From assembly GCF_000518085.1 (NCBI RefSeq), contig NZ_JACX01000005.1, forward strand, positions 24,070-88,069: DNA of 64,000 nucleotides, given 5' to 3'. Positions 368-20,388 of this stretch are shown here, in pieces. The translations under genes were made by a program, and so were the position numbers. The number at the start of each line of letters is the position of its first letter. Position 1 is the first letter of the stretch. The DNA is from Bartonella grahamii ATCC 700132. GTDB lineage: Bacteria > Pseudomonadota > Alphaproteobacteria > Rhizobiales > Rhizobiaceae. Under the pieces are notes generated by a model. The model searched no databases and was not told the origin of the DNA. It saw only the letters and a list, made by a program, of their open reading frames with translations.

Positions 368-568
368 ATGACAGAAAATGATATTCTTTTGACAGACCGT
401 GAAAGTGCAAAACTGCTTCATATGAGTGTTTCAACATTCCGCCGTCATGTAACTAATGGCTCTCTCCCAAAACCTTTAAAATTTGGTTTTTTATCGCGTT
501 GGTTACAATCAGATCTTATCAATGTAATCGAGCAAGCGAAACAGCAACGTCAAAGCGACGCGGCATAA
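368..568 (+). CDS. AlpA-like helix-turn-helix regulator
   Basis: A 66-residue protein with a winged helix-turn-helix of the AlpA/MerR-like excisionase type: LLTDRESAKLLHMSVSTFRRHV, then a short basic wing and R-W at about residue 44. Family members are small DNA-binding regulators or excisionases in prophages and islands that control integrase expression. It lies 210 bp downstream of the integrase end in the same direction, which is the usual arrangement. A purine-rich ribosome site (aaagga) precedes the ATG. It appears intact, while the genes after it are broken. Confidence 0.75.
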   Translation: MTENDILLTDRESAKLLHMSVSTFRRHVTNGSLPKPLKFGFLSRWLQSDLINVIEQAKQQRQSDAA

Positions 569-571
569 AAA

Positions 572-606
572 GAAAACCTTGTCACGTAAGGACGGACAAG
601 GCTTTC
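572..606. terminator. Hairpin after the AlpA-like gene
   Basis: Two 12-base arms (GAAAACCTTGTC and GACAAGGCTTTC, one mismatch) separated by an 11-base loop start four bases after the AlpA-like stop codon. A terminator is plausible, but the T tract is short and interrupted (TTTCTC). Confidence 0.45.
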
Positions 607-668
607 TCAAGCTCATCACCCTAGAGAGTGCACAATCCGTCCTATGAGGCAACGTTATAGGATTTAAA

Positions 669-1565
669 ATGATGTGTTCTTTTAAGAATGCGCAGGGCAT
701 TACACGTGCTGTGCGAGGGTTTGGCGTGGGCGTTATGGACCCGTTGCCCTGCTCATGATGATAGGCTACCTAGCTTATCCCTTGCCAATGGACATGATGG
801 GCGTCTCTTACTCTACTATTATGCCGGTTGTTCTTTTAGAGAGATCATACAAACGCTCATTAGAATTGGCTTGCTTGGAAAACAAGCCTTTTTTGATAAA
901 GCTTATGACCAGACGCTCTCTTTCTCAAAACAGTTTTGTGCTGATCTCAAACGAGCAAAACAGAAAGCAGAGAGAGCAAAAGCAATTTGGCAACAAAGCA
1001 AACCAATCGAAAATACTTTAGCAGAAACCTATTTACGTATGCGGGGTATTACATGTGATTTGCCTGCTGATTTACGCTTTTATGACAAATGTTCGCACCC
1101 CTCTGGGGTTACACTGCCCGCGTTGGTTGCTCTTGTTCAGGGGGCTTGGCTCCTTTGCTATTTATAGAACCTTTTTACAAGCCAATGGCTGTACAACAGA
1201 TCAAAGATCAGCAAAAGCCATGTTGGGATCTGTAACGGGTGGTGGGGTGCATTTAAGTCAAGCCAATCCAAAACATCTGGTCATTTGTGAAGGCATTGAA
1301 ACGGGTCTGGCTCTGCTGTCTGGGTTGTTATCAGAGCCCGTTAATTTATGGGCGTCCCTTTCAACCCATGGAATGATGCGTGTGAATTTACCCCCTTATA
1401 AAAGGGCGTCTCACCATTGCAATGGACGGCGATGATGCGGGTCGTAAAGCAGGTTTTAACCTCGCTGCGCGTACCTATAGCCAAGGCTTTGAGGTTTTTA
1501 TCATGCAAGCTCCAAAAGGAACCGATTTTAATAACGTATTACTTTCTCAAAAGAAGGAACTATGA
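669..1565 (+). pseudogene. Phage/plasmid primase (Toprim domain), frameshifted
   Basis: The protein is recoverable only by joining at least three frames. An N-terminal piece begins near 669. A zinc-binding-type segment (RCPAHDDRLPSLSLANGHDG) and a helical part run to about 1,140. A second frame carries the Toprim core (LVICEGIETGLALLSGLL) from about 1,060 to 1,400. A third frame (MDGDDAGRKAGFNLAART) runs to the stop at 1,565. This is the order seen in phage and plasmid Toprim primases (DUF7146-type N-terminus), which make RNA primers for replication. Frameshifts near 740, 1,140 and 1,400 make it a pseudogene. The next reading frame begins with an ATGA overlap at 1,562 but stops after 31 codons. 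Confidence 0.8.
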
Positions 1566-2134: not shown

Positions 2135-2914
2135 ATGAGTCATAGTTTTGTCGATATCGTAAATAATCCTGCATATAATGAAAAATCGTTGGCGCTGGTA
2201 GTCGCAGGGACTGCTGAGATAGCGCGGAATGTCATAGATTCACTAATTAATGGTGGTTATTTCGTAGTTTTTACATGGTTCAGTAATGAAACCGCCGTTA
2301 GTGATATGAAGCATCGGTACCAAAGTGCTGTCTTGCCAGTTCGCTTGGATTTGACATCTGAGCAAGACGTCGTGCAGTTTTGTGCTGCCTTAGAAAATGT
2401 TAGAATTGAGATAGCTATCTACTGTGCTGGTTATAACCCAGCATGTTTGTGCGATGAGCTGGAACCCGAAAATATTAACGCCATCACTCGTCTTAACTAT
2501 CTGTCAGCCGTGCTGATTTTCAATATGGTAGTCAAAACGATGAAGCAGTATAAAGAAAATGAGACCAAGCTGGTGTTTATCAGTTCGGTGGCCGCAAAAA
2601 AAATCAGAGTGGGTAACTCTTTATATGGCTCGACGAAGGCAGCCATGGAAAGATATCTCTCCGGCATTGCACTGGAAATGGGCCGATTCAATATCAGAAC
2701 GCTGTGCGTAAGCCCTGGTTATATCAAGACAAAGATGCTTCAGGACTATTGTGCGAAAGAAGGAAGAAGTATTGCTAGCATAGAAAAAACCATCCCAATG
2801 AGGAAAATGTTGGCTGCCGAAGATGTTGCGAATGCTGTCAATGCGTTTATTAACGGTAAAATTATTACTACAGGCGTTTCATTAACGATAGGGAATGGTG
2901 AGGGGATTATCTAA
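2135..2914 (+). CDS. SDR-family 3-oxoacyl-ACP reductase (ketoreductase) of the polyketide operon
   Basis: A 259-residue short-chain dehydrogenase/reductase. It shows an N-terminal dinucleotide-binding strand (LALVVAGTAEIARNVIDSL, a diverged TGxxxGIG motif), a catalytic Ser in FISSVAA at about residue 150, and the Tyr-x-x-x-Lys pair in LYGSTKAA at about 164-168. FabG-type enzymes reduce the 3-keto group of ACP-bound acyl chains with NADPH. It is the first gene of the operon, with a strong ribosome site (aagggggagg) just before the ATG. Its stop codon overlaps the ATG of the acyl carrier protein gene (TAATG), pointing to coupled translation. The nucleotide-binding loop is atypical, so cofactor preference is uncertain. 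Confidence 0.8.
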   Translation: MSHSFVDIVNNPAYNEKSLALVVAGTAEIARNVIDSLINGGYFVVFTWFSNETAVSDMKHRYQSAVLPVRLDLTSEQDVVQFCAALENVRIEIAIYCAGYNPACLCDELEPENINAITRLNYLSAVLIFNMVVKTMKQYKENETKLVFISSVAAKKIRVGNSLYGSTKAAMERYLSGIALEMGRFNIRTLCVSPGYIKTKMLQDYCAKEGRSIASIEKTIPMRKMLAAEDVANAVNAFINGKIITTGVSLTIGNGEGII

Positions 2915-3297
2915 TGTATATTACAACAATTAGCCAGATTTTTAAAGATGTCATGTATCTTGATGAGTCAGAAGAGCTTGATCCACACAAGTCGCTATTC
3001 TCTGATTACGGAATGACTTCGATTGATTATATTGATTTTGCCTTCGAGTTAAAAAAGCACTTCAAGGTTGATGTTAGTCCTGAAAGCCTTTGGCCGGTAA
3101 ATAAATGGGCCACTACAGAAGCATTTTACTCATTTGACACCAAAGAGTGGACTAGCGAAGGTGTTGCTAAAATCAATGACCTGCTGGGGTTAAAAGAATA
3201 TGAATCGATTGATAAGAAAATCCAGTTTAAAGAACTCTACTCCTATTTCACGCTGAACTATATCAACCAGCGTATATCAGTTTTAAAGCGCAACTAG
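2914..3297 (+). CDS. Acyl carrier protein (extended, 127 aa)
   Basis: The N-terminal 80 residues look like an acyl carrier protein: an acidic helix, then DYGMTSIDYIDFAFELKKHF with Ser36 in the position that receives the 4'-phosphopantetheine arm (usual motif D-S-L/I-D). At 127 residues it is longer than typical ACPs (about 80), and the C-terminal extension is not recognisable. It would hold the growing acyl chain for the ketosynthase, ketoreductase and dehydratase encoded beside it. The phosphopantetheinyl transferase in the same operon is the obvious activating enzyme. It overlaps the reductase gene by one base and is followed after one base by the next gene. Confidence 0.75.
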   Translation: MYITTISQIFKDVMYLDESEELDPHKSLFSDYGMTSIDYIDFAFELKKHFKVDVSPESLWPVNKWATTEAFYSFDTKEWTSEGVAKINDLLGLKEYESIDKKIQFKELYSYFTLNYINQRISVLKRN

Positions 3298-3298
3298 C

Positions 3299-4366
3299 AT
3301 GACGGAAAGGGTCTATATAAAAAACTATGGTGTGTATCAGCAATTCGCGCCTAATAGTGCAGCGCTGAGCCAGCTGCTCAGCGCTGGGGGTGAGATTAAT
3401 CCTTGTGATATGGACTATTACCATGTTTTGACACCGTCTATGATAGACAAGAAGCTGATCAGCAGAGAAGACCGCTCAGTGCTGAATGATATGTCAAAAA
3501 TGGTAATCAATGCGCTGATAGATTTTCAAAGTAAAGATTGCCTGGCGGAGCATGCAAAAGCTTTTCTATATACTGCATGCGATAGCGAAGACCGCAGCTT
3601 TGATTTGCTTTTTGAAATTTGCCGTAAATATAAAGACGATGGTTCAGTCTGGAAGCATATCCAGCAGTATAAGGAGATAAATAATCCTCTGAATACGTTG
3701 CGATTGTTGCCAACAAATGTGTTGTATCACATCTCAAAATTGTTACTTGATCATGAGGAAGGGACGCCGTTACGTGCCGCATCATTAAGTGGCCTAGTTG
3801 CATTGAAATTGGCTTATGCTGACATCGCTAATATAATTGCAAAAGAGCGAGCGATGGTTGTTAGTGCAGCAAATATGCTGAGCTTCGATAGTCTGACTGT
3901 CTTTAAAAAATTCGGTGAAATTCGACAAAGTGATAAAGATATTTCTGGTATTATCCCCAGTTGGGGGGCGGCAGTGATGTCTTTAGACAATAACAGCTGC
4001 GATGCGCTAGCTGAATTAATCTCTGTAACTATTCATTATTGCCCTAAAGTCAGTTTTGAAGAACGGGACTGGGAAAGCCTGTTGAGTAAACAACGAACAC
4101 AACAGGGGGAACCTGATGTTATTGTTAGTTATAACAACGGTATTCGTATGCAACAAATAGCTGAATATTCAGCGCTAGAGAAATTTTTTCCAGAGATACC
4201 GGTTGTTAACTATAAATCTAAAACTGGGTACACTGGAAAACTCAATAACATACTGGATATTTTATGCTGTCTTAATGATCCTACGATTCCATCGGGGGCC
4301 CGGGTTATGCTGACTGGTGCGGCTATCAATTATGGTATCGGAAATATTTGGATAATTAAACACTAA
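3299..4366 (+). CDS. Ketosynthase-like protein without active-site Cys (chain-length-factor-like)
   Basis: A 355-residue protein with the outline of a beta-ketoacyl synthase: GTPLRAASLSGLVALKLAY aligns with the nucleophile-elbow region, and PSWGAAVMSLD aligns with the PxxGAxAxxLE loop. The active-site Cys is absent (AASLSG instead of xACSSG), and the conserved His residues in HGT and GH motifs are not seen. In type II polyketide and aryl polyene systems such inactive partners (chain length factor, ApeC-like) pair with an active ketosynthase and shape the product cavity. The gene directly precedes an intact ketosynthase gene, which supports a heterodimer. The start one base after the ACP stop suggests translational coupling. 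Confidence 0.65.
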   Translation: MTERVYIKNYGVYQQFAPNSAALSQLLSAGGEINPCDMDYYHVLTPSMIDKKLISREDRSVLNDMSKMVINALIDFQSKDCLAEHAKAFLYTACDSEDRSFDLLFEICRKYKDDGSVWKHIQQYKEINNPLNTLRLLPTNVLYHISKLLLDHEEGTPLRAASLSGLVALKLAYADIANIIAKERAMVVSAANMLSFDSLTVFKKFGEIRQSDKDISGIIPSWGAAVMSLDNNSCDALAELISVTIHYCPKVSFEERDWESLLSKQRTQQGEPDVIVSYNNGIRMQQIAEYSALEKFFPEIPVVNYKSKTGYTGKLNNILDILCCLNDPTIPSGARVMLTGAAINYGIGNIWIIKH

Positions 4367-4379
4367 GGGGAGCTTTACA

Positions 4380-5666
4380 ATGAATACCCATTTTGATGCA
4401 GATACATTATGTATTAGTGCATATGGGGCCGTTACGCCATTAGGCAGCCACTTGGATGAAATTCACGCCTGCTTTATGCGTGAGAAAAGTGGTATACGGA
4501 AGATTGAAAAATTTGATCACCAGTATTTTCAAACTCATGAAGCTGGGATTCCTATAGAAGGTAATGAGTTGCTACGCTGGCCTAAAAAAAAATCCTTCAG
4601 AAACGGCGAGCTTTTTTATGCGGGCTTAGCAGCAAAGAGACTGCATGAACGACTGAATTTGCAGGAATATTATCCAGCAGAAGATATTGGCTGTATTGTA
4701 GGGATTGATGAATCGGCAATCGATATTGAAAAGTCTATCGGTTTTGCGGATAAGGTTCCCGTCGACGCGGATAAGCAATGCTTGGTCGATGTCGCGCTAG
4801 AACATTTTAAAATTGATGAGTTTTTTGATCTCGATACAACCGCGGTTCTAAAAACGATACATGAAATTATCCCGTTTGCGGGCCTCAGCTTTGCCCTTCT
4901 AGGCCTTTGTTCTGCATCAACGCAAAGTATCGGCCTCGCGATGCGAGCCATCCGCAATGGTGAAGTTAAAGCGGCGATTTGCGGCGGTGTTTCTGCGAAA
5001 GTCACCCCGCTGAATCTTGCGCGATTAGAAGAAATGGGAGTGATATCGACTGATCAAAACTACTGTGGACCACGGCGTTCGCGGCCTTTTGACCGGCATC
5101 GCAGCGGATTTGTTTTAGCGGAGGGCGCAGGTCTGTTCGTTATTGAAAAATTATCTAACGTACTGGCGCGGCAGCGTGAGCCGTTGGCCTATTTATTGGG
5201 TTACGGCGGTGCACTTTGCGCACAGCATATTGTAGCGCCGCATAAAGATGATCTCGAAATGCAACTGTCGATGGAACGAGCCATCGAACATGCGGGTATT
5301 GACCGTACCGCTATTGATTTTGTGAATACACATGGGACATCGACACTACAAAATGATCAGCACGAAGCCAGTGCAATCAGAACGGTTTTTGGCGCGCACA
5401 ACCCGGCGATTGTGGCGACAAAATCTTGGCACGGGCATCTGATTGCTGCTGCCGGTGCGATGGAAATTTTGTGTGTACTGGTTTCTTTTCGGAACAATGT
5501 TTTGCCTAAAATTTTGAATTGTGATGAAATCGATCCTCAATTGCCTGCTGGCATTGCGCTTGTGAGGGAGCACCAGTACCGACCGCTTAAATACGCATTG
5601 AAAAACTCATTTGGTATGGGTGGTGGCGCAAGCAGCTTGGTTTTAGGGAATCCACAATATCTGTAA
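4380..5666 (+). CDS. Beta-ketoacyl-ACP synthase (KS-alpha-like)
   Basis: A 428-residue FabF-type ketosynthase. The catalytic triad is visible: Cys177 in GLCSAST, His318 in NTHGTST and His353 in KSWHGHLIAAAG, with Lys348 just before it. GEVKAAICGG and SFGMGGGASSLV near the C-terminus are also family signatures. It would perform decarboxylative Claisen condensation of an acyl starter with malonyl-ACP. It is preceded by a good ribosome site (aaggggag) and follows the inactive KS-like gene by 13 bases, the KS/CLF pairing typical of type II systems. The product cannot be deduced from sequence. Confidence 0.85.
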   Translation: MNTHFDADTLCISAYGAVTPLGSHLDEIHACFMREKSGIRKIEKFDHQYFQTHEAGIPIEGNELLRWPKKKSFRNGELFYAGLAAKRLHERLNLQEYYPAEDIGCIVGIDESAIDIEKSIGFADKVPVDADKQCLVDVALEHFKIDEFFDLDTTAVLKTIHEIIPFAGLSFALLGLCSASTQSIGLAMRAIRNGEVKAAICGGVSAKVTPLNLARLEEMGVISTDQNYCGPRRSRPFDRHRSGFVLAEGAGLFVIEKLSNVLARQREPLAYLLGYGGALCAQHIVAPHKDDLEMQLSMERAIEHAGIDRTAIDFVNTHGTSTLQNDQHEASAIRTVFGAHNPAIVATKSWHGHLIAAAGAMEILCVLVSFRNNVLPKILNCDEIDPQLPAGIALVREHQYRPLKYALKNSFGMGGGASSLVLGNPQYL

Positions 5667-5676
5667 GGGACACCAC

Positions 5677-7086
5677 ATGCTAACAATATATTCCTTATTA
5701 GAAAGAAACTGGCAAGTGATTTATCATCACAGTCATTATTCGGCAGAGGATGTCAGCATGATGACAAAAGGGTGTGCAGATACCGTAGTTAGATATTGTC
5801 GTGATCGCCCGCAAGAGGAGCAAAATAAGCTGTTTGTTTTTGTGATTAGAAATAATTTCGAAGGTCTGATCAGCTATTTTGTTGCGTCTATGCTAAAATT
5901 GAAAGCTTGGATCGTCAGTATTCATGATTTAGACATTGTTGATATGCTAGTTGATGCCGATTGCATTGCCGCTGTTGTAATGAGCCATGAAGTCAGGGAT
6001 ATTAGTATCATCAGTCACCGGATTAATATCGCGTTTGATCACTGTCTTTCAACTGTGAACGAAAATCTGGCTGATTTTACAGCATATCCGTGCGCGCATT
6101 TCTATTTTTGTACCTCCGGAACAACCAGTAAACCCAAGTTGATTCAATATCATGAAAATATTCTGATTGAGAATGCCCTCGCGGTGAGCCAATCTCTTGG
6201 ACTAAGTAATGAAGATTGCTCATTGTGTTATTTCCCGGTGCAGTATATGTATGGTCTCTCTACTATGCTATGTGCCTTCTTATCGGATAGCAAACTGGTA
6301 TTTGAAAAATTTCAAATAAGTAATATTGGTGAACTCGTTTCGCACTATAGCATTACCAACTTGCCTTTAATCGGTGACTGGATGCTGGCAGTAAGCGACA
6401 TTTTTACCAAAAGCCGAATCCATGTGCAAAATATCTTGAATGCATCCGACCGTTTGCTCACCGTACAAGCATCGGGTATCCTCTCATCATGTACGACGTT
6501 ATGGAATAACTTCGGTCAGACCGAATCCGGACCACGCTTGTTTCATAATAAGATCTGCTCGCTACGCGATATTGAAAGAACCAGTAAATATGGCGTTGTA
6601 GCGCCGGGTAAGGCTTTGGTGAGTGATATAAAAATTGATTTGCGCCCCATTGATCGGGCGGATACTTCTGATTCAGTGCGCCGTATGTTTTATAAAACGC
6701 CTTTCGCGTGTGATGGTTATGTTGATAGTTCCTTGCAATTAAAGCCGCGTGATGAATGGTTTGATTCCGGCGACCTGTTTGTTAAAGATGAATCCGAATG
6801 CTATTACTGGATAGCCAGAGCCGTTAATGAATTTAAACACAATGGTAAGTTTATCCCAGTTCAACTGATTTCAAATGACATTATTAAGTATGCCGGATGT
6901 TTAAGGCATTACTTTTCAAAAGCACAGAACGGCGATCTTTATCTCAACCTTGATATGTCGGCAAATAGTGAGCAGGTTAAAGTCGTTACTAAACTATTGA
7001 CTGATAAATGGTATCAGTATGCATTTAAAGTAAATATCAGAAAAATTGCCACGACAAATACAGGGAAAATAAAATGTACCGTGTAG
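5677..7086 (+). CDS. AMP-forming acyl/aryl-acid ligase (ANL superfamily)
   Basis: A 469-residue adenylating enzyme with the phosphate-binding loop TSGTTSKPK (about residues 146-154), an NNFGQTESGP aromatic/Thr-Glu motif (about 287-296), EWFDSGDLFVKD (the GD motif, about 370) and a C-terminal TGKIK with the catalytic Lys. Such ligases activate a carboxylic acid as the adenylate and load it on CoA or an ACP. In aryl-polyene-like clusters the comparable enzyme activates the starter acid. It is shorter than most acyl-CoA ligases (about 500-550). The last codons overlap the next gene by 13 bases. Substrate unknown. Confidence 0.75.
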   Translation: MLTIYSLLERNWQVIYHHSHYSAEDVSMMTKGCADTVVRYCRDRPQEEQNKLFVFVIRNNFEGLISYFVASMLKLKAWIVSIHDLDIVDMLVDADCIAAVVMSHEVRDISIISHRINIAFDHCLSTVNENLADFTAYPCAHFYFCTSGTTSKPKLIQYHENILIENALAVSQSLGLSNEDCSLCYFPVQYMYGLSTMLCAFLSDSKLVFEKFQISNIGELVSHYSITNLPLIGDWMLAVSDIFTKSRIHVQNILNASDRLLTVQASGILSSCTTLWNNFGQTESGPRLFHNKICSLRDIERTSKYGVVAPGKALVSDIKIDLRPIDRADTSDSVRRMFYKTPFACDGYVDSSLQLKPRDEWFDSGDLFVKDESECYYWIARAVNEFKHNGKFIPVQLISNDIIKYAGCLRHYFSKAQNGDLYLNLDMSANSEQVKVVTKLLTDKWYQYAFKVNIRKIATTNTGKIKCTV

Positions 7087-7778
7087 ATAAAGCTCATGGT
7101 ATGAGCAGAGTGTATGTTAATCGCCGTGCAAACAATTATCTGTGCATTGTGAGCCATTCTTTTTATACCTATTTTTTAGCTATTGATAGGCTTCATCGTT
7201 ATTTGCCTGTATCGACGAGACGTACATCGAGAATGATATTGCAACGTGAAATGGCGAAGGTACTTTTTATCGATATATTTAAACGGATTTTGCCAGATGT
7301 AAAGATGTCACACAGTTCTGTGAGCCATGGACGGAGTAAAAGTATTATGTTGGTTAATAACGATCCGCGGATTCGGTCTGTCGGGGTTGATATCGAATTT
7401 ATTCAGAAAAAAAAACTACCGAGACCATTTATGCTAGATTACTGTGAAAAATGCGCGGACTTTCCAGCAGGGCAGGTGCTGGATAATTGGCTATGCACCA
7501 CAATATTTAGCTGCATGGAGAGCTTGTATAAGGCATTATGCGCCATCTCGGCGTGCACTTTTGATATAAATGATTATTTTTTAGTTGAACATGACAGGAC
7601 GCGATGTGTTTTTCGGTACGTTGGGAATATATTTGCGTTTAAAGGGATGACGTTTATTTGTAACTGCTATTATCTTTGTCAATCTGTGATAACCGTTGTT
7701 TTGCTGGATGCATGTTTGCAATCAATTATTTTAGATGACCTCTTATATGAGGACGTAACCGTTTCTATACCCAGTTAG
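7074..7778 (+). CDS. 4'-phosphopantetheinyl transferase (Sfp-like)
   Basis: A 234-residue protein with the three transferase motifs in order: VSHGRSK (about residue 82), VGVDIE with the Mg-binding Asp106 and Glu108, and CMESLYKAL with Glu149 and Lys153. These enzymes move the phosphopantetheine arm from CoA to the Ser of carrier proteins. The likely target is the ACP at the start of the operon, making the cluster self-sufficient and independent of the housekeeping AcpS. The start lies inside the end of the ligase gene. The protein is unusually Cys-rich in its C-terminal half. Confidence 0.75.
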   Translation: MYRVDKAHGMSRVYVNRRANNYLCIVSHSFYTYFLAIDRLHRYLPVSTRRTSRMILQREMAKVLFIDIFKRILPDVKMSHSSVSHGRSKSIMLVNNDPRIRSVGVDIEFIQKKKLPRPFMLDYCEKCADFPAGQVLDNWLCTTIFSCMESLYKALCAISACTFDINDYFLVEHDRTRCVFRYVGNIFAFKGMTFICNCYYLCQSVITVVLLDACLQSIILDDLLYEDVTVSIPS

Positions 7779-7832
7779 TTTTTAACGAGTTTATGGCAAT
7801 GCCATAACTAGCTTCATTTAGAGGAATATGTG

Positions 7833-8495
7833 ATGAATGATTTACTGGTAAATATCACCCCTGAGCACTATAAAAAGTATGCTACTGAAAGTACATCATC
7901 GTGGAATGCGTATTTGATGGAAAGAATTCTGGAAGAAGCATCTGGTGTTATTTCTGCGAAGAAAAAAATTCTCGATATTGGCATGGGAACTGGCCACATG
8001 CTTTTCAAGCTTTACCGCTCCCAAAAACTCACAGACTATTCCTTTTACGGGGTTGATATTGATCCCCGTATGGTTCAGTTTTGTGTTAAAAAATGTACCG
8101 AATTAAAATACCAGCATGCATTCAACATTATTGAAGCCAGTGTCAGCAATTTACCGTTTCCCGATAACTCCTTTTCAATGATTTATGCCCGTTCCGTAAT
8201 TCATCACTGGACTGAACCTAAAAAAGGATTACAGGAGTTGTGCCGTGTTTTAGATCGCGGCGGTCGTATTATCATCCACGAACCCCTAGCTGATTCAGAA
8301 GAAATAGCACTGGGTGTTTTTAACCAATCACGTCGTGAATGCGGTGTGGCAGCTATGTCCACAGAAGAAAAATTTACATTAGCCGGTATCACTGATCTTT
8401 TATATGGCTGCGATCTTAGTGAGATGAGCTGGACAGTGGCATGTGGAGAAGGTCTAGCAGCTCTGGGTTGTGCAATTTTCATTAAAAAGGTCTGA
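7833..8495 (+). CDS. Class I SAM-dependent methyltransferase
   Basis: A 220-residue UbiE/COQ5-like methyltransferase. Motif I is ILDIGMGTGHML (about residues 47-58), followed by the acidic GVDIDPRMVQ, then LPFPDNSFSMIYARSVIHHW and a DRGGRIIIHEP strand. It would transfer a methyl group from S-adenosylmethionine to an O, N or C atom of the pathway product. The ATG at 7,833 was chosen over the GTG at 7,830 because it is better spaced from the gagg ribosome site. A 54-base gap separates it from the transferase gene, the widest in the operon's first half, so a secondary promoter is possible but not evident. Confidence 0.8.
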   Translation: MNDLLVNITPEHYKKYATESTSSWNAYLMERILEEASGVISAKKKILDIGMGTGHMLFKLYRSQKLTDYSFYGVDIDPRMVQFCVKKCTELKYQHAFNIIEASVSNLPFPDNSFSMIYARSVIHHWTEPKKGLQELCRVLDRGGRIIIHEPLADSEEIALGVFNQSRRECGVAAMSTEEKFTLAGITDLLYGCDLSEMSWTVACGEGLAALGCAIFIKKV

Positions 8496-8501
8496 GTTAT
8501 C

Positions 8502-9719
8502 ATGGATTATTTCTGTGCTGAAATGTATGCAAAAATGCAACCACGTATAACGGCAATAACTGGCTGCCATGCACTCGATTACATTGCTTTCCGCGATTCG
8601 GTTAGGATAAGTACACGCGTTTATTCGACCACTGGTGATAGTGGTTCTTTGACTCAAGTGGTCTCTGCGGGTGAACACTTACCGATGCTGATTAGTGCTA
8701 CAAGCGGCATCACCGGGGCGATGAAAATGGCCAACGTTCGTTTAAAATTCTGTAAGGAAGGGATCAGCTCATCAGAGCGCAATTTAATTCGTAACCTGCG
8801 CGCGCGGCAGGTTTTTTCCCCAGGGGATGTTGTTGGCAACCTGTTTACGATTAATCTGTTTTCATCTTTACACTACTTGGCGTGTGAAATTTTAAAAAAT
8901 TGCCGTGCACATGTTGTGCCGGTTGGCGATATTGCTCTGCTGCTGAAGAGTCATTTCGAGTTTCTGGCTGAAATACGGCTTTCGGTACTGTTTGGTGTGC
9001 CCAGCACCATCGTTCAGTTCGTTGAAGCTATGATCAGCCTTGGGGTTCCACTGGCAATTAAAAAAGTGGTCTTTACCGGTGAATCGATGCTGAGCGTGCA
9101 TGAAAACTATCTGCGCGAGATGCTGGGCGCCGATCTGCGGATAATTGGTTTATATGGTTTGTCGGAGTGCGGTTTCATTGGTATGTCCGCCGAAGGGCGG
9201 CTTAATCGGTACCTGCTCTTCAGCGATGATTTCTTCTTTGAATATGAAGATAAGAGAGGGCTGCTAGTGACATCACTGGATCCCGATGCCTCGCGCAAGC
9301 TTATCAGATATTCCGTGGGCGATATGGGCACATTATCCGTTGAAAATGGTGACCTCTATTTTGAAGGTATTAAACGCAATGCTATTGATTTTAATTTCAT
9401 GGGAAATTTGATTAGCCATGAAAAAATATTCAAAATTATTAATCGACGGTTGCCCGATGTAATTGTTCAAATTGTATTGTCCTTATCCGCGGATAGACAA
9501 GAGATTATGGATATTAAAATCTGCTGCGAAGTATTTCACGACCTTGATTTGTCCGAACTAACTGAGGAAATCTATCATTTGCCGGATATTTATGAAGCCT
9601 ATATGAAAAAGCGCGGACGTATTAATGTCACCATCGTCGAATATAGCGATTTGCTTTTCTCATCCAGAGGGAAATACCTGCTAGTTTATGACGCAAGGGA
9701 GTCCTGTAATGCAACTTGA
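8502..9719 (+). CDS. Phenylacetate-CoA-ligase-like adenylating enzyme
   Basis: A 405-residue protein resembling PaaK-type members of the ANL superfamily. ISATSGITGAMK (about residues 63-74) replaces the usual SSGTTGxPK. It is followed by FGVPSTIVQFVEAM, KKVVFTGESM, then GLYGLSECG with the adenine-pocket Tyr and Glu, and a C-terminal VTSLDPDASRKLIRYSVGD segment. PaaK-like enzymes activate aryl acids with ATP. The P-loop lacks one Thr of the canonical motif, so activity may be altered. It is the second adenylating enzyme in this operon; one could load a starter and the other release, transfer or activate an extender. The end of the gene overlaps a small ORF. Confidence 0.7.
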   Translation: MDYFCAEMYAKMQPRITAITGCHALDYIAFRDSVRISTRVYSTTGDSGSLTQVVSAGEHLPMLISATSGITGAMKMANVRLKFCKEGISSSERNLIRNLRARQVFSPGDVVGNLFTINLFSSLHYLACEILKNCRAHVVPVGDIALLLKSHFEFLAEIRLSVLFGVPSTIVQFVEAMISLGVPLAIKKVVFTGESMLSVHENYLREMLGADLRIIGLYGLSECGFIGMSAEGRLNRYLLFSDDFFFEYEDKRGLLVTSLDPDASRKLIRYSVGDMGTLSVENGDLYFEGIKRNAIDFNFMGNLISHEKIFKIINRRLPDVIVQIVLSLSADRQEIMDIKICCEVFHDLDLSELTEEIYHLPDIYEAYMKKRGRINVTIVEYSDLLFSSRGKYLLVYDARESCNAT

Positions 9720-9810
9720 TAATTTGTGTAATGAAATTGTATCAGGGAATTCGCATACGATAAATGACAACATCAGGTTTTATAGCGTGTCACCGGAGCA
9801 GCAGGAGTAA
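9709..9810 (+). CDS. Small ORF, 33 aa, unknown
   Basis: An ATG four codons before the stop of the PaaK-like gene opens a 33-residue frame that ends three bases before the next gene's ATG, so it fills the gap exactly. The peptide begins MQLDNLCNEIVSG and is acidic and polar, with no motif recognised. The gene-to-gene overlap and a full-length read to the next ribosome site make it plausible as a coupled small protein. It could equally be a spacer, and no strong ribosome site of its own was found beyond aaggga about 10 bases upstream. Confidence 0.4.
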   Translation: MQLDNLCNEIVSGNSHTINDNIRFYSVSPEQQE

Positions 9811-9813
9811 ATC

Positions 9814-10887
9814 ATGTCAGATGATGTTATTGATAATTATGATTTAGATAATAACGCATTGTTTATTCGTGGATGTAATTTGATTGATATTGCCGATGAA
9901 AACCGTTATTTGCAGAACGCATGGTTTGCACTGATTGGCAACCTTCTTAATGAAGAACAGATGGATCTGCTGATTCAGAATACTAACGCCGAACTGCAAA
10001 AGACGGATCCTACAGCCAAACTGCAGGCGATGCATCAACTGATCAATGTATTGCCATCTTTGGGTTTAAAGCAGCGATTTATGATGTTATTATCGCAAGT
10101 TGAGGTTTCGGCGGCTCAGGGTAAGGTCATGGCTCCCGTAAGCGACGGTGATTGTCTTAAAATTATCTTGCTGATGCCGTGGATTATTGCATTGGCGTGC
10201 TCTTCCCAACAGTTTTCCGATTTGCCGGAGATCGGAAATTGCAATACCTTTGAGCGTGCTTTTTGGTTAGCATTAACTAGCAAGGAAGCTTCTTCCGACT
10301 GGGATATTGATGTGCTTTGCCGGTGCATGTCTCTACTGCTGGGCGGGTTTGGTACTGTGATACCCACAACCACCACGGTAAGATTTATTGCCAGTACCAA
10401 GAGCGACGTCATTTCTGCACTAATCGGTGGGTTTTGTGCCACTGTCCCCACGCATATGGGAGCCTGCAAATATGCTATCATGCGACTTTCTGCTGTCCTC
10501 CATGAGATTGAAGCCGGGAATTTTGAGGCGGCGGTAACGCATTATTGCAAAGATAAACTCTGGCTAGGGTTTGGTCATCCGATTATGCAATGGGATGTCC
10601 GGGTTGATTTCTTTTTTTCACGCTTTCAGGTGCCTATGTGCCCCTTCAGTTCGCTTGTGCGATCTATTTCGGACAATACAGGACTGCAACCCAATGTCGA
10701 TTTTCTAATTGCAAGCATCATGAGTAAATATCGGGCTTCTCATGAGCTGGGATTGTTGGCTTTTTTCGTTTGTCGTATGCCGATACTTCTCGCGCACTAT
10801 CAAGCGCGGTTTAGCGCTCATTCCTTCGGTTTATCATCAAAGGATTTAAGAGAAAAATATAAAAAGGTCTCCCAATTATGGCTATAA
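9814..10887 (+). CDS. Citrate-synthase-like enzyme in the polyketide operon
   Basis: A 357-residue protein related to citrate synthase. Catalytic positions are visible: His214 in VPTHMGACK (aligned with the LHGGA loop), His255 in LGFGHPIMQWDVR (aligned with GFGHRVYK-DPR), and Asp296 in QPNVDFLIASIM (aligned with PNVDFYS). The two His residues are 41 apart, as in E. coli citrate synthase (from memory); the Asp is closer than usual. Citrate synthases condense acetyl-CoA with oxaloacetate; relatives use propionyl or longer acyl thioesters. Inside a carrier-protein operon, the natural guess is condensation of the finished acyl chain with an oxoacid. Substrate is inference. It overlaps the dehydratase gene by 10 bases. 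Confidence 0.7.
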   Translation: MSDDVIDNYDLDNNALFIRGCNLIDIADENRYLQNAWFALIGNLLNEEQMDLLIQNTNAELQKTDPTAKLQAMHQLINVLPSLGLKQRFMMLLSQVEVSAAQGKVMAPVSDGDCLKIILLMPWIIALACSSQQFSDLPEIGNCNTFERAFWLALTSKEASSDWDIDVLCRCMSLLLGGFGTVIPTTTTVRFIASTKSDVISALIGGFCATVPTHMGACKYAIMRLSAVLHEIEAGNFEAAVTHYCKDKLWLGFGHPIMQWDVRVDFFFSRFQVPMCPFSSLVRSISDNTGLQPNVDFLIASIMSKYRASHELGLLAFFVCRMPILLAHYQARFSAHSFGLSSKDLREKYKKVSQLWL

Positions 10888-11675
10888 AGCATCGCACCGA
10901 GCCAAATTTCTTGGGTATATGTCAGAGTATCACCTTAACCGCACCGATGCGTGCTTGCGGGCAAATCGATATTTCTCACTGGAAGTTAGCCCATAACTAT
11001 TTGAAACAGGGCTTGTTACTCGAAACCTCGCATCAGTTTTCAGTTCGATTCGCCACTATGGTGGCTAAAAACTCGGATCTCACTTATCGCTATCTCCCTG
11101 TTATGGTTGAACAGTTTTTCTCTACCGCCCATTTTGATAGCGATCGGTTACACGTTGAAGGACATATTGAACGCATTAATGAGGCCTACCGTATTCACTG
11201 TAAGGCTAGCACATACGACAATGGAAAGGCCGTTATTGCGCAGGCAATCATCATGGTCAGTAAGGTCCGCTTCCCTAGCTCGTGTTCTCAGAAAGCCGCT
11301 CTTCCATTACTAGGCGATTTATGTAAGATTTCCTCCGTAACCAGAGATTCTTGTACTTTTTCCTTTAATGCGCATCACCCGCTTTTTGAGGAACATTTCC
11401 CCTCCCGCGCCGTATGTCCTGGTTCACTATTGATTGAGATGGTTCTGGCTTTAGCCACGCAGGGTAGGACAAAAAATATCGCATCTGTTGCGCTGAAAAA
11501 AGTAAAGTTCATTGAAGCAGTTTATCCGGGAAATACCTATCAGTTGACCATTAAACAGGATACAGAGTATGAACCGGGTGGCGTTTTTTATATTCATACG
11601 GAAACTAAAAAACGAAGCACTTGCGGTAAGTTTTCTATCAAATATAAAAAGGAGGATGCACCATGTTTAACATAA
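10878..11675 (+). CDS. Double-hotdog 3-hydroxyacyl-ACP dehydratase (FabZ/FabA-like)
   Basis: A 265-residue protein in two halves. The C-terminal half has the FabZ signature HHPLFEEHFPSRAVCPGSLL, with catalytic His173 and Glu187 (in LLIEM) 14 residues apart, as in FabZ. The N-terminal half looks like a second, inactive hotdog fold (RFATMVAKN...YLPVMVEQFFSTA). FabZ removes water from 3-hydroxyacyl-ACP to give the trans-2-enoyl chain. No enoyl reductase is encoded nearby, so repeated KS-KR-DH cycles would leave conjugated double bonds, as in aryl polyenes. The gene starts inside the citrate-synthase-like gene. Confidence 0.75.
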   Translation: MAIKHRTEPNFLGICQSITLTAPMRACGQIDISHWKLAHNYLKQGLLLETSHQFSVRFATMVAKNSDLTYRYLPVMVEQFFSTAHFDSDRLHVEGHIERINEAYRIHCKASTYDNGKAVIAQAIIMVSKVRFPSSCSQKAALPLLGDLCKISSVTRDSCTFSFNAHHPLFEEHFPSRAVCPGSLLIEMVLALATQGRTKNIASVALKKVKFIEAVYPGNTYQLTIKQDTEYEPGGVFYIHTETKKRSTCGKFSIKYKKEDAPCLT

Positions 11676-12220
11676 TAATCTCTTTTATTCCGTGGAGTAT
11701 TTACTCCTGGGTTATCAACGGAAACGTTTTAACTCAGGTCGAACGCTCTCTCATCTTAACTGTGATTTTATTGTCCATTATTGCTGTGAATATTAAAATT
11801 GTCCGACAGGGAGAACCCGTGATGATTACTAACATTCTAACAGTTATTGTCCTGTTTGTTAATCATTTCGCTGGATGGTCTACACTTTTACTGAACTATC
11901 CCACAGTTTTTTGCTATCTGTCACTTGCTCTGGTTTCATTGATTAGCTTGCTGGTAAAGAAACCCTTTACCATTTTTTATGCCACAGCTAGTATTTCTGA
12001 AGAAAAACGCAAACATATCCTATTTTATCGCATCAATAAATATATTACATGGATTTGGGTAATCATCTTTTTTGCCAATGGTCTTCTAGTGGCTTTTTTT
12101 ACATGGACCCCCCAGATTTGGTTAATCACTATGGGTTTAATTTGTACTGGTATTCTTTTTTCTAAATATCTTCCTAACATCATGCAATATTTTTATCGCA
12201 TCAAACATCATGGAGCATAA
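11663..12220 (+). CDS. Multi-pass membrane protein of the operon, unknown
   Basis: A 185-residue very hydrophobic protein with about five membrane segments (near residues 5-20, 30-46, 52-70, 76-96 and 128-165). Between segments four and five is KKPFTIFYATASISEEKRK, which resembles a recurring RPFTLQYA-type loop of uncharacterised bacterial membrane proteins. A strong ribosome site (aaaaaggagg) lies in the end of the dehydratase gene, and the two genes overlap by 13 bases. Its place in the operon suggests a role in moving or anchoring the product or in membrane assembly of the enzymes; this is inference only. Confidence 0.6.
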   Translation: MFNIIISFIPWSIYSWVINGNVLTQVERSLILTVILLSIIAVNIKIVRQGEPVMITNILTVIVLFVNHFAGWSTLLLNYPTVFCYLSLALVSLISLLVKKPFTIFYATASISEEKRKHILFYRINKYITWIWVIIFFANGLLVAFFTWTPQIWLITMGLICTGILFSKYLPNIMQYFYRIKHHGA

Positions 12221-12221
12221 T

Positions 12222-12725
12222 ATGTCATTGTTTAACATTCTGACCGGAACCCCTAAATGGGCCTGGATTTTACTTATTTTTCTCATCGCGAGGGGAATAA
12301 TCGCATTGAAAGATAGGGAAACGAAGGTTTACCGCCTTTTTCTCTTGCCGTTAGTCTTTCTTTTTTTGGGCGCAAGCGATGTGATTAACCAGCTGGCGTT
12401 CCCACGCTGGGGAGCAATCGCAATGTTGGCAGGGCTGATGATCGGCTTTGGCGTTGGCTGGTTGCTCTGGCATGCCACTCCGCGTTTAAAAATCAAAGAG
12501 GGAACGGATTTAATTATTCTGCCTGGTACGCCGTTGACGCTGACATTTATTCTTATCGCTTTTGTCATCAAATTCACATTGATTGCTTTTCTCAAGATTG
12601 AACCTGATTTGAAATATGCATTTGATTTTAACCTTCTTTTTGGTCTTTTAAGTGGGTTCACTGGTGGTGTGTTGTGGGGCGGCACATTAAATTTATATAT
12701 AGCATTTCGAAAGAATCCAAATTAA
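12222..12725 (+). CDS. Small membrane protein (DUF6622-like)
   Basis: A 167-residue protein with about five hydrophobic segments: KWAWILLIFLIARGI at the start, then LFLLPLVFLFLGASDVI, IAMLAGLMIGFGVGWLLW, PLTLTFILIAFVIKFTLIAFL and a Gly-rich FGLLSGFTGGVLWGG end. The layout resembles the uncharacterised DUF6622/CcdC-like family. The ATG at 12,222 has a ggag site six bases upstream; an ATG at 12,210 overlapping the previous gene is an alternative. It is the last gene of the operon, followed by a hairpin. Function unknown. Confidence 0.6.
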   Translation: MSLFNILTGTPKWAWILLIFLIARGIIALKDRETKVYRLFLLPLVFLFLGASDVINQLAFPRWGAIAMLAGLMIGFGVGWLLWHATPRLKIKEGTDLIILPGTPLTLTFILIAFVIKFTLIAFLKIEPDLKYAFDFNLLFGLLSGFTGGVLWGGTLNLYIAFRKNPN

Positions 12726-12791
12726 TCCCTATACCATTAGCTGTGGGTGCTTCCCATTAGAACTATCTCAATAGAAGCTTATTCCTAATAA

Positions 12792-12817
12792 CAACGCTGC
12801 ATACAAATGCAGCGTTG
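12792..12817. terminator. Perfect 11-bp hairpin after the polyketide-like operon
   Basis: Arms CAACGCTGCAT and ATGCAGCGTTG are perfectly complementary around a 4-base loop, 66 bases after the last stop codon. A T7 tract lies 14 bases further on rather than directly next to the stem, so it may be a terminator with a spacer or an RNA-stabilising 3' end. Confidence 0.6.
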
Positions 12818-13948
12818 CCTCGTAGTTTCAGATTTTTTTATCCCAGCGCGTGAAGAGGTGAGGAAAGTGATATATCTGACTATGCCCCCTTGAGGGAAGA
12901 GCGAGCCTAAAGGTTTAGAATGCTATGAGTTTGAGCTAGCTGGACTTTGAGCAGATGGTTTATCGCTCATGGGAAATCATTTTGTTTTACGATTCAAAAA
13001 GAGGATAGTGATGGTTTCATTGGCGTAGGTGGGCAAGAAAACTGTTAGCTTGGCAATGCGTCAACAATTTGTAGAACTATGTTGTGGAACCCCTACGCAA
13101 AGCCGTTGCTATGATGGCATGATGCTTTTGTCAAGCATTATGATATGGGGTAGGAACCGATGTTTAAGGATGCAACTGCAGTCACTGTACGATCCAGTAG
13201 CATTACGTTTGAGTATTTAGGAGCGGTAGACTCTGTACAGGCTATGCGTACAATATGTGAAGCACGCTTGTGGGAATCAGTGTGTCATTATTGTGTTGTG
13301 CATGCAACCCTCTAGCGAGTACTTCATTGGTAAGGCTGTTTTTTGAAGCTGGTTGTAATTATCTGTGTGTTTTTAAAGAGAACGTTAGCACCGATGTATC
13401 GCGTGCAGTACCGTTTTCCTTTATAAAACTATTCTCATTTCTTTTGTTTCTTTAAGAAATCTGCACTTCTCAGCCTTTTTTGCATATGATCGATAACGTA
13501 GCTCAAGTTCCTTGAGACAGTGATTTTTTTCTCTTTTTGCTAAAAATGCCCAAACCATCTTATTTAGTCGAGACTTCGTTTAAGAAGGGATCTTCTAAAT
13601 TTATTATTTTTTTCAATAGGATATAAATTTCTCGTTTTGGGTGCGCGGTAGACTTATAGCAGTAACAAGCTTAGGCGTATAGTTAGCAGATACCGTCATT
13701 ATTGAGGAGTTTATTTAAATTGTGTTTGATCGATTGAGGTATACAGAAAAACGTGATCAATAAGCTTAGGTTTATTGGTTCTAAGCGTAGAGGGGGTGAG
13801 CTAACCAATGCAAAAGAATAAATTGTTTTTTTGCGCTGAGCGTTGGTTATTTTTCGACATAATTGCATTTTGGTCTAACTTTGTGAACACACACTATTTC
13901 TGGACTAATCGAGGAAATAGAACATTCATGTGTTGAGAGGATTAGACA
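12818..13948. other. Non-coding or decayed stretch
   Basis: No gene can be supported here. Short open frames (for example around 13,029-13,220) show no family resemblance. An 18-base segment at 13,390-13,407 recurs exactly at 28,084-28,101; read on the minus strand both give ARDTSV, so two relics of one coding sequence are likely. Confidence 0.5.
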
Positions 13949-14185
13949 ATGAGTTGTAAACAATTAGAGTAAGAAATAGACACTGTAAAGTATACGTCAA
14001 TGTAGGAGTCCAAAGCTTATGGCACACTTATTTAAGTGACGATTATTTAGGCTAAACGCATCATGTGCTTGTGGTGCCAAAAGGCTATCAATATGAGGGA
14101 AAGATTTACAAAAGCTTGAAAGCTATTGCCAAGCATATTACCGACATCAATTGGAATGGCTATTTATTTTTTGTCCTTTTAAGGC
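13949..14185 (+). pseudogene. DUF2924 phage protein, decayed
   Basis: From the ATG at 13,949 the frame reads MSCKQLE, stop, EIDTVKYTSM, stop, which matches the typical N-terminus of DUF2924 proteins. After an apparent internal deletion, THHVLVVPKGYQYEGKIYKS, LKAIAKHITDINWNGYLFF follows, the hallmark C-terminal block (usual form YKSLSAIAxxITGxxWNGPLFFGL). DUF2924 genes accompany serine recombinases in alphaproteobacterial prophages. Stop codons and frameshifts show it is dead. The next relic, a recombinase, is its usual partner. Confidence 0.7.
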
Positions 14186-14218
14186 GTGGATGAGAGGATG
14201 ACAGGGGACAAGAAAGGT

Positions 14219-14395
14219 GCTTAAACAAGCGATAAAATCAATACGCGGCGCTATATATAGACGTAAATTCACCGAAGAAGGCTTAGAGCAAGAGTTTAGC
14301 TCACTGGACGACAAAAAGAAGCAGGCGAAAGCTTTGTTAAAGCTTATTGTCATGAAGGTTGGCAATTAATACCGACGTTGCTGATAATGTAAAAA
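14219..14395 (+). pseudogene. Serine recombinase N-terminal relic
   Basis: The frames read RGAIYRRKFTEEGLEQEFSS, LDDKKKQAKALL and then, after a shift, AYCHEGWQLIPTL. This matches the resolvase-type start RCAIYTRKSxEEGLEQxFNS LDAQREAC..., followed by HEGWxLIPTxYDDGG. The catalytic Ser is the one in EFSSLD. Only about 60 codons remain. It directly follows the DUF2924 relic, the order known from recombinase-DUF2924 phage modules. Confidence 0.7.
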
Positions 14396-15224
14396 TCATG
14401 CCGCAATATATTTAAGGAGCGAGTGCAAGAGATTAATACATTCCTATGGCAGATTATAAAAGCATGGTTTGCACATGAGCCTAATTATATGATTGATAAG
14501 GCAACACAAATCATTCAGAGACAAAATGGTAAGAGCTATATTTTATTATGAATCTGGCGCACAGTATAAGACCTATAAAGGTAAAGCGTTTTATGGCATG
14601 GGGAGGATTTTCAACATGCTGTCGGGCGTTTGAGGGTGTTCTTACTCTCCGTAAAAGGTATTTTAACAAATCTTGCTTGCACGGACAAGGGAGAACTAGA
14701 AGTGGATGCCGATATAATCCCTTGTGAAATTGGTTTTTATTGCGTCGAAATAAATGATGAAGAAATTTATGTTTTAATTGACAGTGATAGTACTTGTATG
14801 TGCTTGACCAAGCCACATGTGACGCAATTTTTAAATTACCCATGGTGGCATGTCGTCAAATTGACGATACAGCTCTTCGATTTGTCAGAAATATGACAAT
14901 GCTAAAATATAGACATCTTTTGGATGTGTTTGTGACAATTGATAAGCTTACTGATAATGTTTGTAAGTGCCATAATAGCGCACAAGAAAAAATATAAAAT
15001 CGCCGCATGTGGTAATGCGAATTGATCTAGCTGACTTGCGTAAGTAAAAAGAAATAAAACAAGCACAAGAAACTTTAAAAAATAAAGAGAACAGCTTATA
15101 CGACACTTTTCATGAAAGTAAATTTGCAGAGGATACAGAAATAAATAGGATAAAAGGAATTGCGACATACAAAAAAAATATTCATAGACATATTTTATAC
15201 TAAGCGTAACGGAGAAGCGCAAAG
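14396..15224. other. Decayed stretch before the type III R-M genes
   Basis: No recognised gene. An 88-codon frame at 14,630-14,896 lacks a ribosome site and any family resemblance. At 15,015-15,203 a 62-codon frame, interrupted by one TAA at codon 11, reads MRIDLADLRK then KEIKQAQETLKNKENSLYDT and ends 21 bases before mod; it may be the relic of a small coiled-coil gene. Confidence 0.35.
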
Positions 15225-17162: not shown

Positions 17163-17190
17163 ACTATAGAGAGACGATTGGGGTGGCGAT

Positions 17191-20100: not shown

Positions 20101-20388
20101 AAAATAGCCACTCCCATTGGTTCTTATACGCCTGATTGGGCGGTCTTTTTAGAGCGGGATGGCGAACAAAAGCTTTACTTTGTGCTGGAAACAAAAGGGG
20201 CAAACAGCGAGTTTGATTTGCGTCTTAAAGAAATGCTGAAAATTAAATGCGGCAAAGCGCATTTTGCTGCACTGCAAACGAGCGTTGCATTTAACGACCA
20301 GCCGGTGACAAATTGGCGTGAATATAAGCGTACTTTGCCCGAAGCGGCGCATGAGTTTCCAAGTGCTGCGGTGGTTGTTGCAGAATGA
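17191..20388 (+). CDS. res: Type III restriction-modification endonuclease/helicase (Res)
   Basis: A 1,065-residue protein. The N-terminal superfamily 2 helicase part has METGTGKTYVY (Walker A, about residues 88-98), IIDEPQSVD (DEAD-like box, about 209), a FRYSATH motif III and ARQKIGRGLRLCV (motif VI, about 527). The C-terminal nuclease has the PD-(x)n-ExK arrangement in TPDWAVFLERDG (Asp982) and VLETKG (Glu1000, Lys1002). Res cuts DNA after ATP-driven communication between two sites left unmethylated by Mod. The frame is intact. A decayed copy of its last 190 codons lies at about 22,194-22,757. Confidence 0.9.
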   Translation: MKLKFKQQEFQNDAVKSVIDLFKGQPRRNSSIFLHSEQGQLALNEFGCGNQLLISDESILANLQEVQQNNKLLASKTLEQKQFSIEMETGTGKTYVYSKTIFELNQRYGFTKFIIVVPSVAIREGVYKSLQVTREHFQAEFDNLPYRYFIYNSKDLSQIRQFASSTNIEIMIINIDAFKKAENIINLPQDRLNGESAMRYIQDTNPIVIIDEPQSVDNTAKAKEAIASLNPLCVFRYSATHKDEINLLYRLTPVDAYQKGLVKQICVSSNQIEQDFNRPYIALKSVSHKHGFKARLELDIAGKNGTVSRKTVTVRQGDDLYRVTGGRELYRGYIVSGINCMAGDEAVEFSDTEIVKFGHALGDVNIVELKRAQIYRTIETHLDKELRLAPLGIKVLSLFFIDEVAKYRSNDEEPALYKRMFEECYEELLAKKKYASLRTEFAQNVRNVHGGYFSQDKKGVYKDTKGDSQADDDTYNTIMRDKEWLLSFACPLRFIFSHSALREGWDNPNVFQVCMLIEQKSNFTARQKIGRGLRLCVNQQGERVEDKDINVLHVMVNESFAEFVSTLQKELEADIGYKFGTLQMEELVGRIYEDVKYAAAKVEMPQAQKIIKTLVAKDLIDEAGMVKANQDLVASEFEAIGAEEMPRELRQEIMKKIDSGALINVETLQDLIYMTAVTETKILSSQEAADILVELREKALLTSAGKITDTLKAQWATGALDLSERFSKGQKQAVLQALEASQAMPIIRNAAREVRVKLKKQTVASPEFLSLWEKINKKTTYRAKLNRTEFVAKAVDAVKKMVPVAPAHLVYQTAEIKLDSAGVTYEEQLLKQSTLDYSLCTLPNIVHYLTLKLKLTAKTIIGILTKSGREHEFVKNPQAFLERIEEILNKTHVNLTIDGIKYLKLVGKEYSVQELFTSEELVANLERTAVVSEKSVYDHVVYESSVEKEFAQSLENDPEVRLFFKLPRSFKIATPIGSYTPDWAVFLERDGEQKLYFVLETKGANSEFDLRLKEMLKIKCGKAHFAALQTSVAFNDQPVTNWREYKRTLPEAAHEFPSAAVVVAE

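What the first reader, a model, noticed from the sequence alone, without database searches (positions are those of the whole stretch)
2135..12725. Compact highly reducing type II polyketide-like operon in a Bartonella-like genome
Twelve co-oriented genes, many overlapping, encode a full KR-ACP-CLF-KS-ligase-PPTase-MT-ligase-CS-DH set with no enoyl reductase. By established knowledge, KS/CLF+KR+DH without ER yields conjugated polyenes (aryl polyenes, ishigamide-type products). All frames are open and key catalytic residues are present, while the flanking phage genes are dead, so selection seems to keep it. GC content appears higher than the surrounding genome, a sign of transfer. It lacks the glycosyltransferase, thioesterase and MMPL-type genes usual in aryl polyene clusters, so it is probably a different product class.
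Basis: partly seen in the sequence, partly recalled or inferred. Interest (0 to 1): 0.88.

Follow-up and report, generated by a model that had tools for sequence, protein, structure and literature searches.

The report
Rare mobile polyketide operon in Bartonella
A Bartonella genome carries a 12-gene operon, shared in the same order with Kosakonia and Rahnella, that encodes a rarely found type II polyketide-synthase-like gene set plus a citrate-synthase-like protein; it is predicted to make a small unsaturated acid of an unknown class, and may already be decaying in Bartonella.

The parts
2135..2914 (+). KR, SDR ketoreductase (259 aa)
   Evidence: PF13561/PF00106 over cut-off; S...Y164-GST-K168 motif; 85% identical in Kosakonia
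2914..3297 (+). ACP with long C-terminal extension (127 aa); Ser36 in GMTSID
   Evidence: PF00550 38.7 bits; Ser by eye
3299..4366 (+). CLF-like, KS-fold partner without the catalytic triad (355 aa)
   Evidence: AF2 pLDDT 88; Foldseek/VIA to KS and KS/CLF structures; S162, N280, Y311 at the Cys/His/His positions (mapping by eye)
4380..5666 (+). KS, FabF-like ketosynthase (428 aa), C177-H318-K348-H353
   Evidence: PF00109/PF02801; residues 6 of 6; tree
5677..7086 (+). LIG1, acyl-AMP ligase (469 aa), likely loads the starter on the ACP
   Evidence: PF00501 37.7 bits over 29.9
7074..7778 (+). PPTase-like (234 aa)
   Evidence: PF01648 19.3 bits, below cut-off 25; the PPTase gene of the E. asburiae locus is over it (42.6)
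7830..8495 (+). SAM methyltransferase, UbiE/BioC-like (221 aa)
   Evidence: PF08241 79 bits
8502..9719 (+). LIG2, PaaK-like acyl-AMP/CoA ligase (405 aa); P-loop TSGITG instead of TSGTTG
   Evidence: PF00501 25.3 bits, below cut-off; NCBIfam PaaK-type, far below cut-off; A5; Kosakonia orthologue over cut-off
9709..9810 (+). 33-codon in-frame stub of the 13th gene (NAS/methyltransferase-like, 281 aa in Kosakonia); 708 nt missing against Kosakonia
   Evidence: same stub in G017
9814..10887 (+). CS-like, citrate synthase superfamily (357 aa), H214-H255-D296 kept, G211V
   Evidence: PF00285 69.3 bits; A4
10878..11675 (+). DH-like double hotdog protein (265 aa), H173 and E187
   Evidence: PF07977 23.1 bits; A6; AF2 and fold search
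11663..12220 (+). TM1, membrane protein (185 aa), 5-6 hydrophobic stretches
   Evidence: no Pfam match; hydropathy
12210..12725 (+). TM2, membrane protein (171 aa), DUF6622-like, 4 hydrophobic stretches
   Evidence: PF20327 23.2 bits, below cut-off 27; Kosakonia orthologue 33.5, over it; hydropathy
368..1167 (+). remnants upstream: AlpA-like excisionase (368-568) and part of a phage-type primase (688-1167)

Best explanation
The operon encodes a ketosynthase, a partner predicted to share the ketosynthase fold but lacking the catalytic residues, an ACP, a ketoreductase, a predicted hotdog enzyme and a citrate-synthase-like protein, and it likely works as a highly reducing type II polyketide synthase whose unsaturated chain would then be joined to a 2-oxo acid. 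Predicted order of steps: the PPTase-like protein arms the ACP; LIG1 loads an unknown carboxylic acid; KS-CLF extends it with malonyl units (the host's FabD would supply malonyl-ACP and FabI any enoyl reduction; for cispentacin FabI was shown in vitro and FabD proposed); KR and the hotdog enzyme reduce and dehydrate, leaving double bonds; after release LIG2 would re-activate the acid as a CoA ester, the CS-like enzyme would condense it with oxaloacetate or a similar 2-oxo acid, and the methyltransferase would cap it; TM1 and TM2 would export it or protect the cell. Shown: gene content, order, sequence families, residues, distribution, the deletion in the 13th gene. Predicted: the folds of CLF and hotdog protein. 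Inferred: every chemical step and the product. In this Bartonella the second half (LIG2, stub) may be impaired.
Confidence: 0.5

Rival explanations
1. It is a cispentacin/coronafacate-type system: LIG1 loads a 2-oxo acid, the KS adds one C2 unit and the CLF-like protein acts as a cyclization factor giving a five-membered ring, with the hotdog protein as decarboxylase.
For: Weak NCBIfam matches to AmcB, AmcF, AmcH and AmcE; AmcG is also a motif-less, reduced CLF-like protein, and Lonsdalea, which also holds CLF and CS-like homologues here, is named among carriers of amcG-type clusters (PMC10698177, sections 7 and 9; whether the same cluster is meant was not checked).
Against: KS scores 151 bits on the AmcF model against a cut-off of 325, less than a ketosynthase of another Bartonella genome (209.6 bits, G015); 0 of 297 genomes of Bartonella's order pass that cut-off; LIG1 scores 28.7 against 370 on AmcH; a KR is present and no aminotransferase. 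No true AmcF or AmcG sequence was at hand.
Confidence: 0.13
2. In this genome the operon is a recently acquired, decaying relic with no product; open frames reflect recent arrival rather than use.
For: 13th gene deleted in frame, also in G017; changed LIG2 P-loop; export/regulatory half not found; KS in 1 of 61 Bartonella genomes at E 1e-60; in 24 Bartonella loci (own one included; 6 second pieces left out) DH is whole in 2, TM1 in 7, TM2 in 16; dN/dS among Bartonella copies about 0.6 (TM2) and 0.4 (TM1) with nearly flat codon-position profiles; dN/dS window-Kosakonia exceeds Kosakonia-Rahnella in 10 of 12 genes.
Against: All 12 frames open over 10.6 kb; window-Kosakonia dN/dS 0.09-0.31, though this averages over the donor lineage; CS G211V is weak evidence, since 8 of the 13 other rows also have private changes at otherwise invariant places, and the window CLF has none; other Bartonella hold full-length CLF and CS proteins.
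Confidence: 0.36
3. It is a dedicated fatty-acid-synthase-like set that makes a modified lipid acyl chain for the envelope, the hotdog protein being an acyl-ACP thioesterase.
For: Hotdog model nearest to TesB and FatA; LolA-like and FtsX-type ABC genes in the Kosakonia/Rahnella unit, as a LolA family gene occurs in the APE cluster.
Against: A KS-fold partner without catalytic residues is typical of polyketide, not fatty acid, synthases (general knowledge); FabA/FabZ-like His and acid kept in 5 of 5; CS-like enzyme unexplained.
Confidence: 0.17

Closest known systems
Highly reducing type II PKS (ishigamide Iga11-Iga12; aryl polyene ApeO-ApeC)
   Same: Discrete KS plus CLF, ACP, KR, hotdog enzyme, ligase; no ER; fold match to the ishigamide KS/CLF
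   Different: KS in its own clade, apart from ApeO and ApeR (no ishigamide KS in that tree); CLF without detectable sequence similarity; CS-like enzyme and second ligase; no glycosyltransferase, MMPL or LolA gene among the 12
Cispentacin/coronafacate KS-CYF system (PMC10698177)
   Same: Motif-less CLF-like partner, adenylating enzyme, ACP, FabZ-like protein; relies on host fatty acid synthase enzymes
   Different: KS and ligase fail the Amc family cut-offs; KR present; no aminotransferase
Fungal maleidride/alkylcitrate pathways (PMC9890510)
   Same: Reducing PKS clustered with a citrate-synthase-like enzyme that keeps the catalytic triad
   Different: Discrete bacterial proteins instead of a fungal highly reducing PKS; ligase instead of hydrolase; no alkylcitrate dehydratase or dimerising cyclase
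AntDE:AntF type II PKS (Photorhabdus anthraquinone, organism recalled)
   Same: Best Foldseek match of the CLF-like model; short KS-fold chain (355 residues)
   Different: KR, hotdog and CS-like proteins here; 13% identity

Membership tests
Highly reducing type II PKS | KS with Cys-His-His | tested here: met
   C177, H318, H353 in 6 of 6
Highly reducing type II PKS | KS-fold partner without catalytic Cys (CLF) | tested here: met
   AF2 and fold search; S162 in 23 of 24, N280 in 23 of 24 (one gap), Y311 in 24 of 24; residue mapping by eye; profile comparison with the KS negative
Highly reducing type II PKS | KR and ACP in the cluster, no ER | tested here: met
Highly reducing type II PKS | dehydratase | tested here: inconclusive
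   FabA-like at cut-off and His/acid pair kept, but fold nearest to thioesterases
Highly reducing type II PKS | KS groups with known HR type II KS | tested here: inconclusive
   Apart from ApeO and ApeR (15 sequences); ishigamide KS not in the tree
Highly reducing type II PKS | polyene product | not testable with these tools
   needs expression
Aryl polyene cluster | glycosyltransferase, MMPL and LolA genes beside the KS/CLF | tested here: not met
   none among the 12 genes; reference CFT073 cluster has them
Cispentacin (Amc) system | AmcF and AmcH above NCBIfam cut-off | tested here: not met
   151 vs 325 and 28.7 vs 370 bits
Citrate synthase superfamily | PF00285 with catalytic His, His, Asp | tested here: met
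   69.3 bits over 27; H214, H255, D296 in 14 of 14; both His align with the genome's own citrate synthase, the Asp assigned by its PNVDF motif by eye
Citrate synthase superfamily | condenses an acyl-CoA with oxaloacetate | not testable with these tools
   needs assay
Alkylcitrate/maleidride pathway | alkylcitrate dehydratase (2-methylcitrate dehydratase-like) | tested here: not met
   no such family among the 12 genes

The most novel reading that the evidence does not exclude
A bacterial counterpart of the fungal alkylcitrate/maleidride logic: a new, tiny type II PKS lineage (its own KS clade and a sequence-invisible CLF family) builds a short unsaturated acid that a PaaK-like ligase re-activates and a dedicated citrate-synthase-like enzyme fuses to oxaloacetate, giving a polyenyl-citrate type metal-binding or membrane-active compound; the 18 kb cassette moves between enterobacteria, and most of it reached a blood-borne Bartonella.
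Probability: 0.22. Interest if true: 0.82.

Novelty: new variant of a known kind. Interest (0 to 1): 0.6.

Why it matters
It defines a rarely found type II PKS-like lineage that sequence searches miss: the CLF has no family model or PDB sequence match, and every source name seen for it is 'hypothetical' or 'uncharacterized'. In all six loci read (window, L021-L025) it comes with the same KR-ACP-CLF-KS core, and in four of them with a citrate-synthase-like enzyme. It supplies testable enzymes from Kosakonia and Rahnella. For Bartonella, it shows a secondary-metabolite-type cassette shared with enterobacteria and largely worn away in the relatives searched. The listings of five full-text searches (one search showed 15 of 467 papers) showed no paper describing it; the library lacks most subscription journals.

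Tried and rejected
Cispentacin reading: suggested by NCBIfam hits, put second after the cut-off test and the 297-genome search. Housekeeping or aryl polyene KS: rejected by the tree (15 sequences); one planned sequence (L005) gave no usable ORF and was left out, and L023 was not put in. Operon on known plasmids, phages or E. coli genomes: CLF and CS-like proteins have no match in the plasmid collection, the operon DNA none in E. coli (near mode only), the CLF and CS-like alignments no confirmed relative in viral contigs, and the KS only ketosynthases under 60% identity in phage records. Profile-profile comparison of CLF and KS gave nothing (1.1% probability), although the predicted fold is KS-like. 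Retained immunity by TM1/TM2: TM2 is whole in 16 of 24 loci and TM1 in 7 (four more TM1 are single open pieces lacking the first 7-13 residues), but dN/dS is about 0.6 (TM2) and 0.4 (TM1) and codon-position profiles are nearly flat, so the idea has only weak support. CS G211V as a sign of decay: weakened, because the same test finds private changes in 8 of the 13 other rows. Promoter scan: 30 promoter-like sites against 29.3 expected; 6 terminator-like against 10.4, uninformative. PDB sequence searches for LIG2 (none) and the 13th gene (no convincing hit) led nowhere. CFT073 first slice missed the APE cluster; the second had it. Bartonella comparative genomics paper PMC3610622 (term search of the main text only) and the type II PKS catalogue PMC10132072 (term search): no mention of polyketide in the first, of Bartonella, Lonsdalea, Pantoea or Xenorhabdus in the second.
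Full report
CHECK. The window lies in a 2.2 Mb genome whose closest named homologues are Bartonella. Twelve + strand ORFs at 2135-12725 are open and tightly packed. Pfam and NCBIfam give SDR, ACP, KS, AMP ligase, methyltransferase, a second PaaK-like ligase, citrate synthase and a FabA-like protein; PPTase and ligase 2 are below the Pfam cut-offs.

KS. Cys177, His318, Lys348 and His353 are kept in 6 of 6. In a 15-sequence ML tree the five cluster KSs form one clade (support 100) on a long branch, apart from three of the genome's own KSs, ApeO and ApeR of E. coli CFT073 and five AmcF-model hits from Bartonella's order.

CS-LIKE. It belongs to PF00285 (69 bits; in the genome search 68, against 470 for the housekeeping enzyme on another contig). 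H214, H255 and D296 are invariant in 14 of 14; the two His align with those of a solved citrate synthase and of the genome's own enzyme; the Asp is assigned by motif.

DISTRIBUTION. 28 CLF clusters were found in 5.8 billion proteins; only the 7,999 candidates sharing most words were scored, so 28 is a lower bound. One genome-contig scan with two peptide patterns gave five loci: Kosakonia sacchari, Rahnella ecdela and an uncultured Enterobacteriaceae MAG carry all 12 genes in the same order at 71-86% identity; Enterobacter asburiae has KR-ACP-CLF-KS-LIG1-DH plus PPTase, an MDR reductase and an aminotransferase; Erwinia aphidicola KR-ACP-CLF-KS with a divergent DH and a PPTase-like gene. 2 of 392 genomes of the Kosakonia genome's family match; one is that genome itself and the other a contig of the same length as the MAG locus.

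THE UNIT. Kosakonia 2348-20234 and Rahnella 2344-20250 (locus coordinates) align over 17,911 columns at 94.9%: ABC ATPase, FtsX/MacB permease, LolA-like, a family-less 417 aa protein (perhaps an outer membrane protein), histidine kinase, LytTR regulator, then the operon with a 281 aa NAS/methyltransferase-like gene (below the Pfam cut-offs) between ligase 2 and CS. In the window that gene is a 102 nt in-frame stub, 708 nt shorter, and the same stub is in Bartonella G017. The export/regulatory genes give no tblastn match in the window, and none over 40% identity in the 11 fetched stretches L026-L036.

BARTONELLA HISTORY. The CS-like query finds matches in 10 of 36 other same-genus genomes, all partial or interrupted; the protein database, however, has a full-length CS from B. 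taylorii (94%) and a 352 aa one from B. heixiaziensis (90%), and full-length CLF from other Bartonella. A tRNA-His gene lies in 10 of the 11 fetched stretches. In G001, G028, G033 and G034 its end GTACCA runs straight into the CS sequence at window 10394; in G000, G002, G011 and G019 an insert of 4.9-5.9 kb lies between; G010 and G027 are arranged otherwise. G017 has MT to TM2 with broken frames between phage endolysin/tail genes and a primase/helicase, and a second tail remnant at tRNA-His on another contig. The KS is in 1 of 61 Bartonella genomes at E 1e-60, TM2 in 23 of 61, the window's genome counted. So the cassette, or its tail, has been at tRNA-His for long, and fuller copies travel with phage debris (inference). 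A 10-N assembly gap sits just upstream of the window, so the head of the element is incompletely known.

SELECTION. NG86 dN/dS window-Kosakonia is 0.09 (KS) to 0.31 (DH); Kosakonia-Rahnella 0.05-0.28, lower in 10 of 12 genes. The first averages over time spent in the donor lineage. Among Bartonella copies the median is 0.60 for TM2 and 0.41 for TM1. Private changes of the window at places otherwise invariant: CLF none, CS G211V, KS 4; 8 of the 13 other CS rows have such changes too, so this alone does not show decay. LIG2 T70I in the P-loop is against 3 of 3 orthologues.

MECHANISM. As stated in Best explanation; recruitment of host enzymes is taken from cispentacin work (PMC10698177, sections 7, 9 and 10 read; FabI shown in vitro, FabD proposed), skipped enoyl reduction giving conjugated bonds from PMC8358021 (passages), CS-like plus reducing PKS from PMC9890510 (passages).

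VERDICT. Real, rarely found and well defined by comparison; a new variant of reducing type II PKS with an unusual citrate-synthase-like partner; product unknown; possibly impaired in this Bartonella.

Noticed in passing
L026:13673-13749 and window 10391-10394: tRNA-His hotspot: the tRNA end GTACCA recurs inside the CS-like gene and is the junction of the tail remnants in several Bartonella genomes, directly or with a 4.9-5.9 kb insert between.
   Followed up: partly
L027, L041 (G017): A partial, broken copy of the operon lies between phage endolysin/tail genes and primase/helicase genes, so it sits inside prophage remains.
   Followed up: partly
L024:9766-12418: Enterobacter asburiae version is followed by an MDR-type reductase and a class I/II aminotransferase, hinting at a different, perhaps amino-bearing product.
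   Followed up: no
window 19770-20330 and 22144-22703: A 78% identical direct repeat of about 560 bases: the end of a large restriction-type gene (my reading, no family search) recurs downstream.
   Followed up: no
L026:14275-18513: Run of membrane-protein-like ORFs in the insert after tRNA-His, shared with Bartonella G017; function unknown.
   Followed up: no
P0033: 620 aa protein in which the CS-like and DH-like proteins are fused (85% to the window DH); may be a real fusion or a frameshift.
   Followed up: partly
L026:19061-19070: Ten N just before the window start: assembly gap between an older CS fragment and the operon's phage-like head.
   Followed up: no
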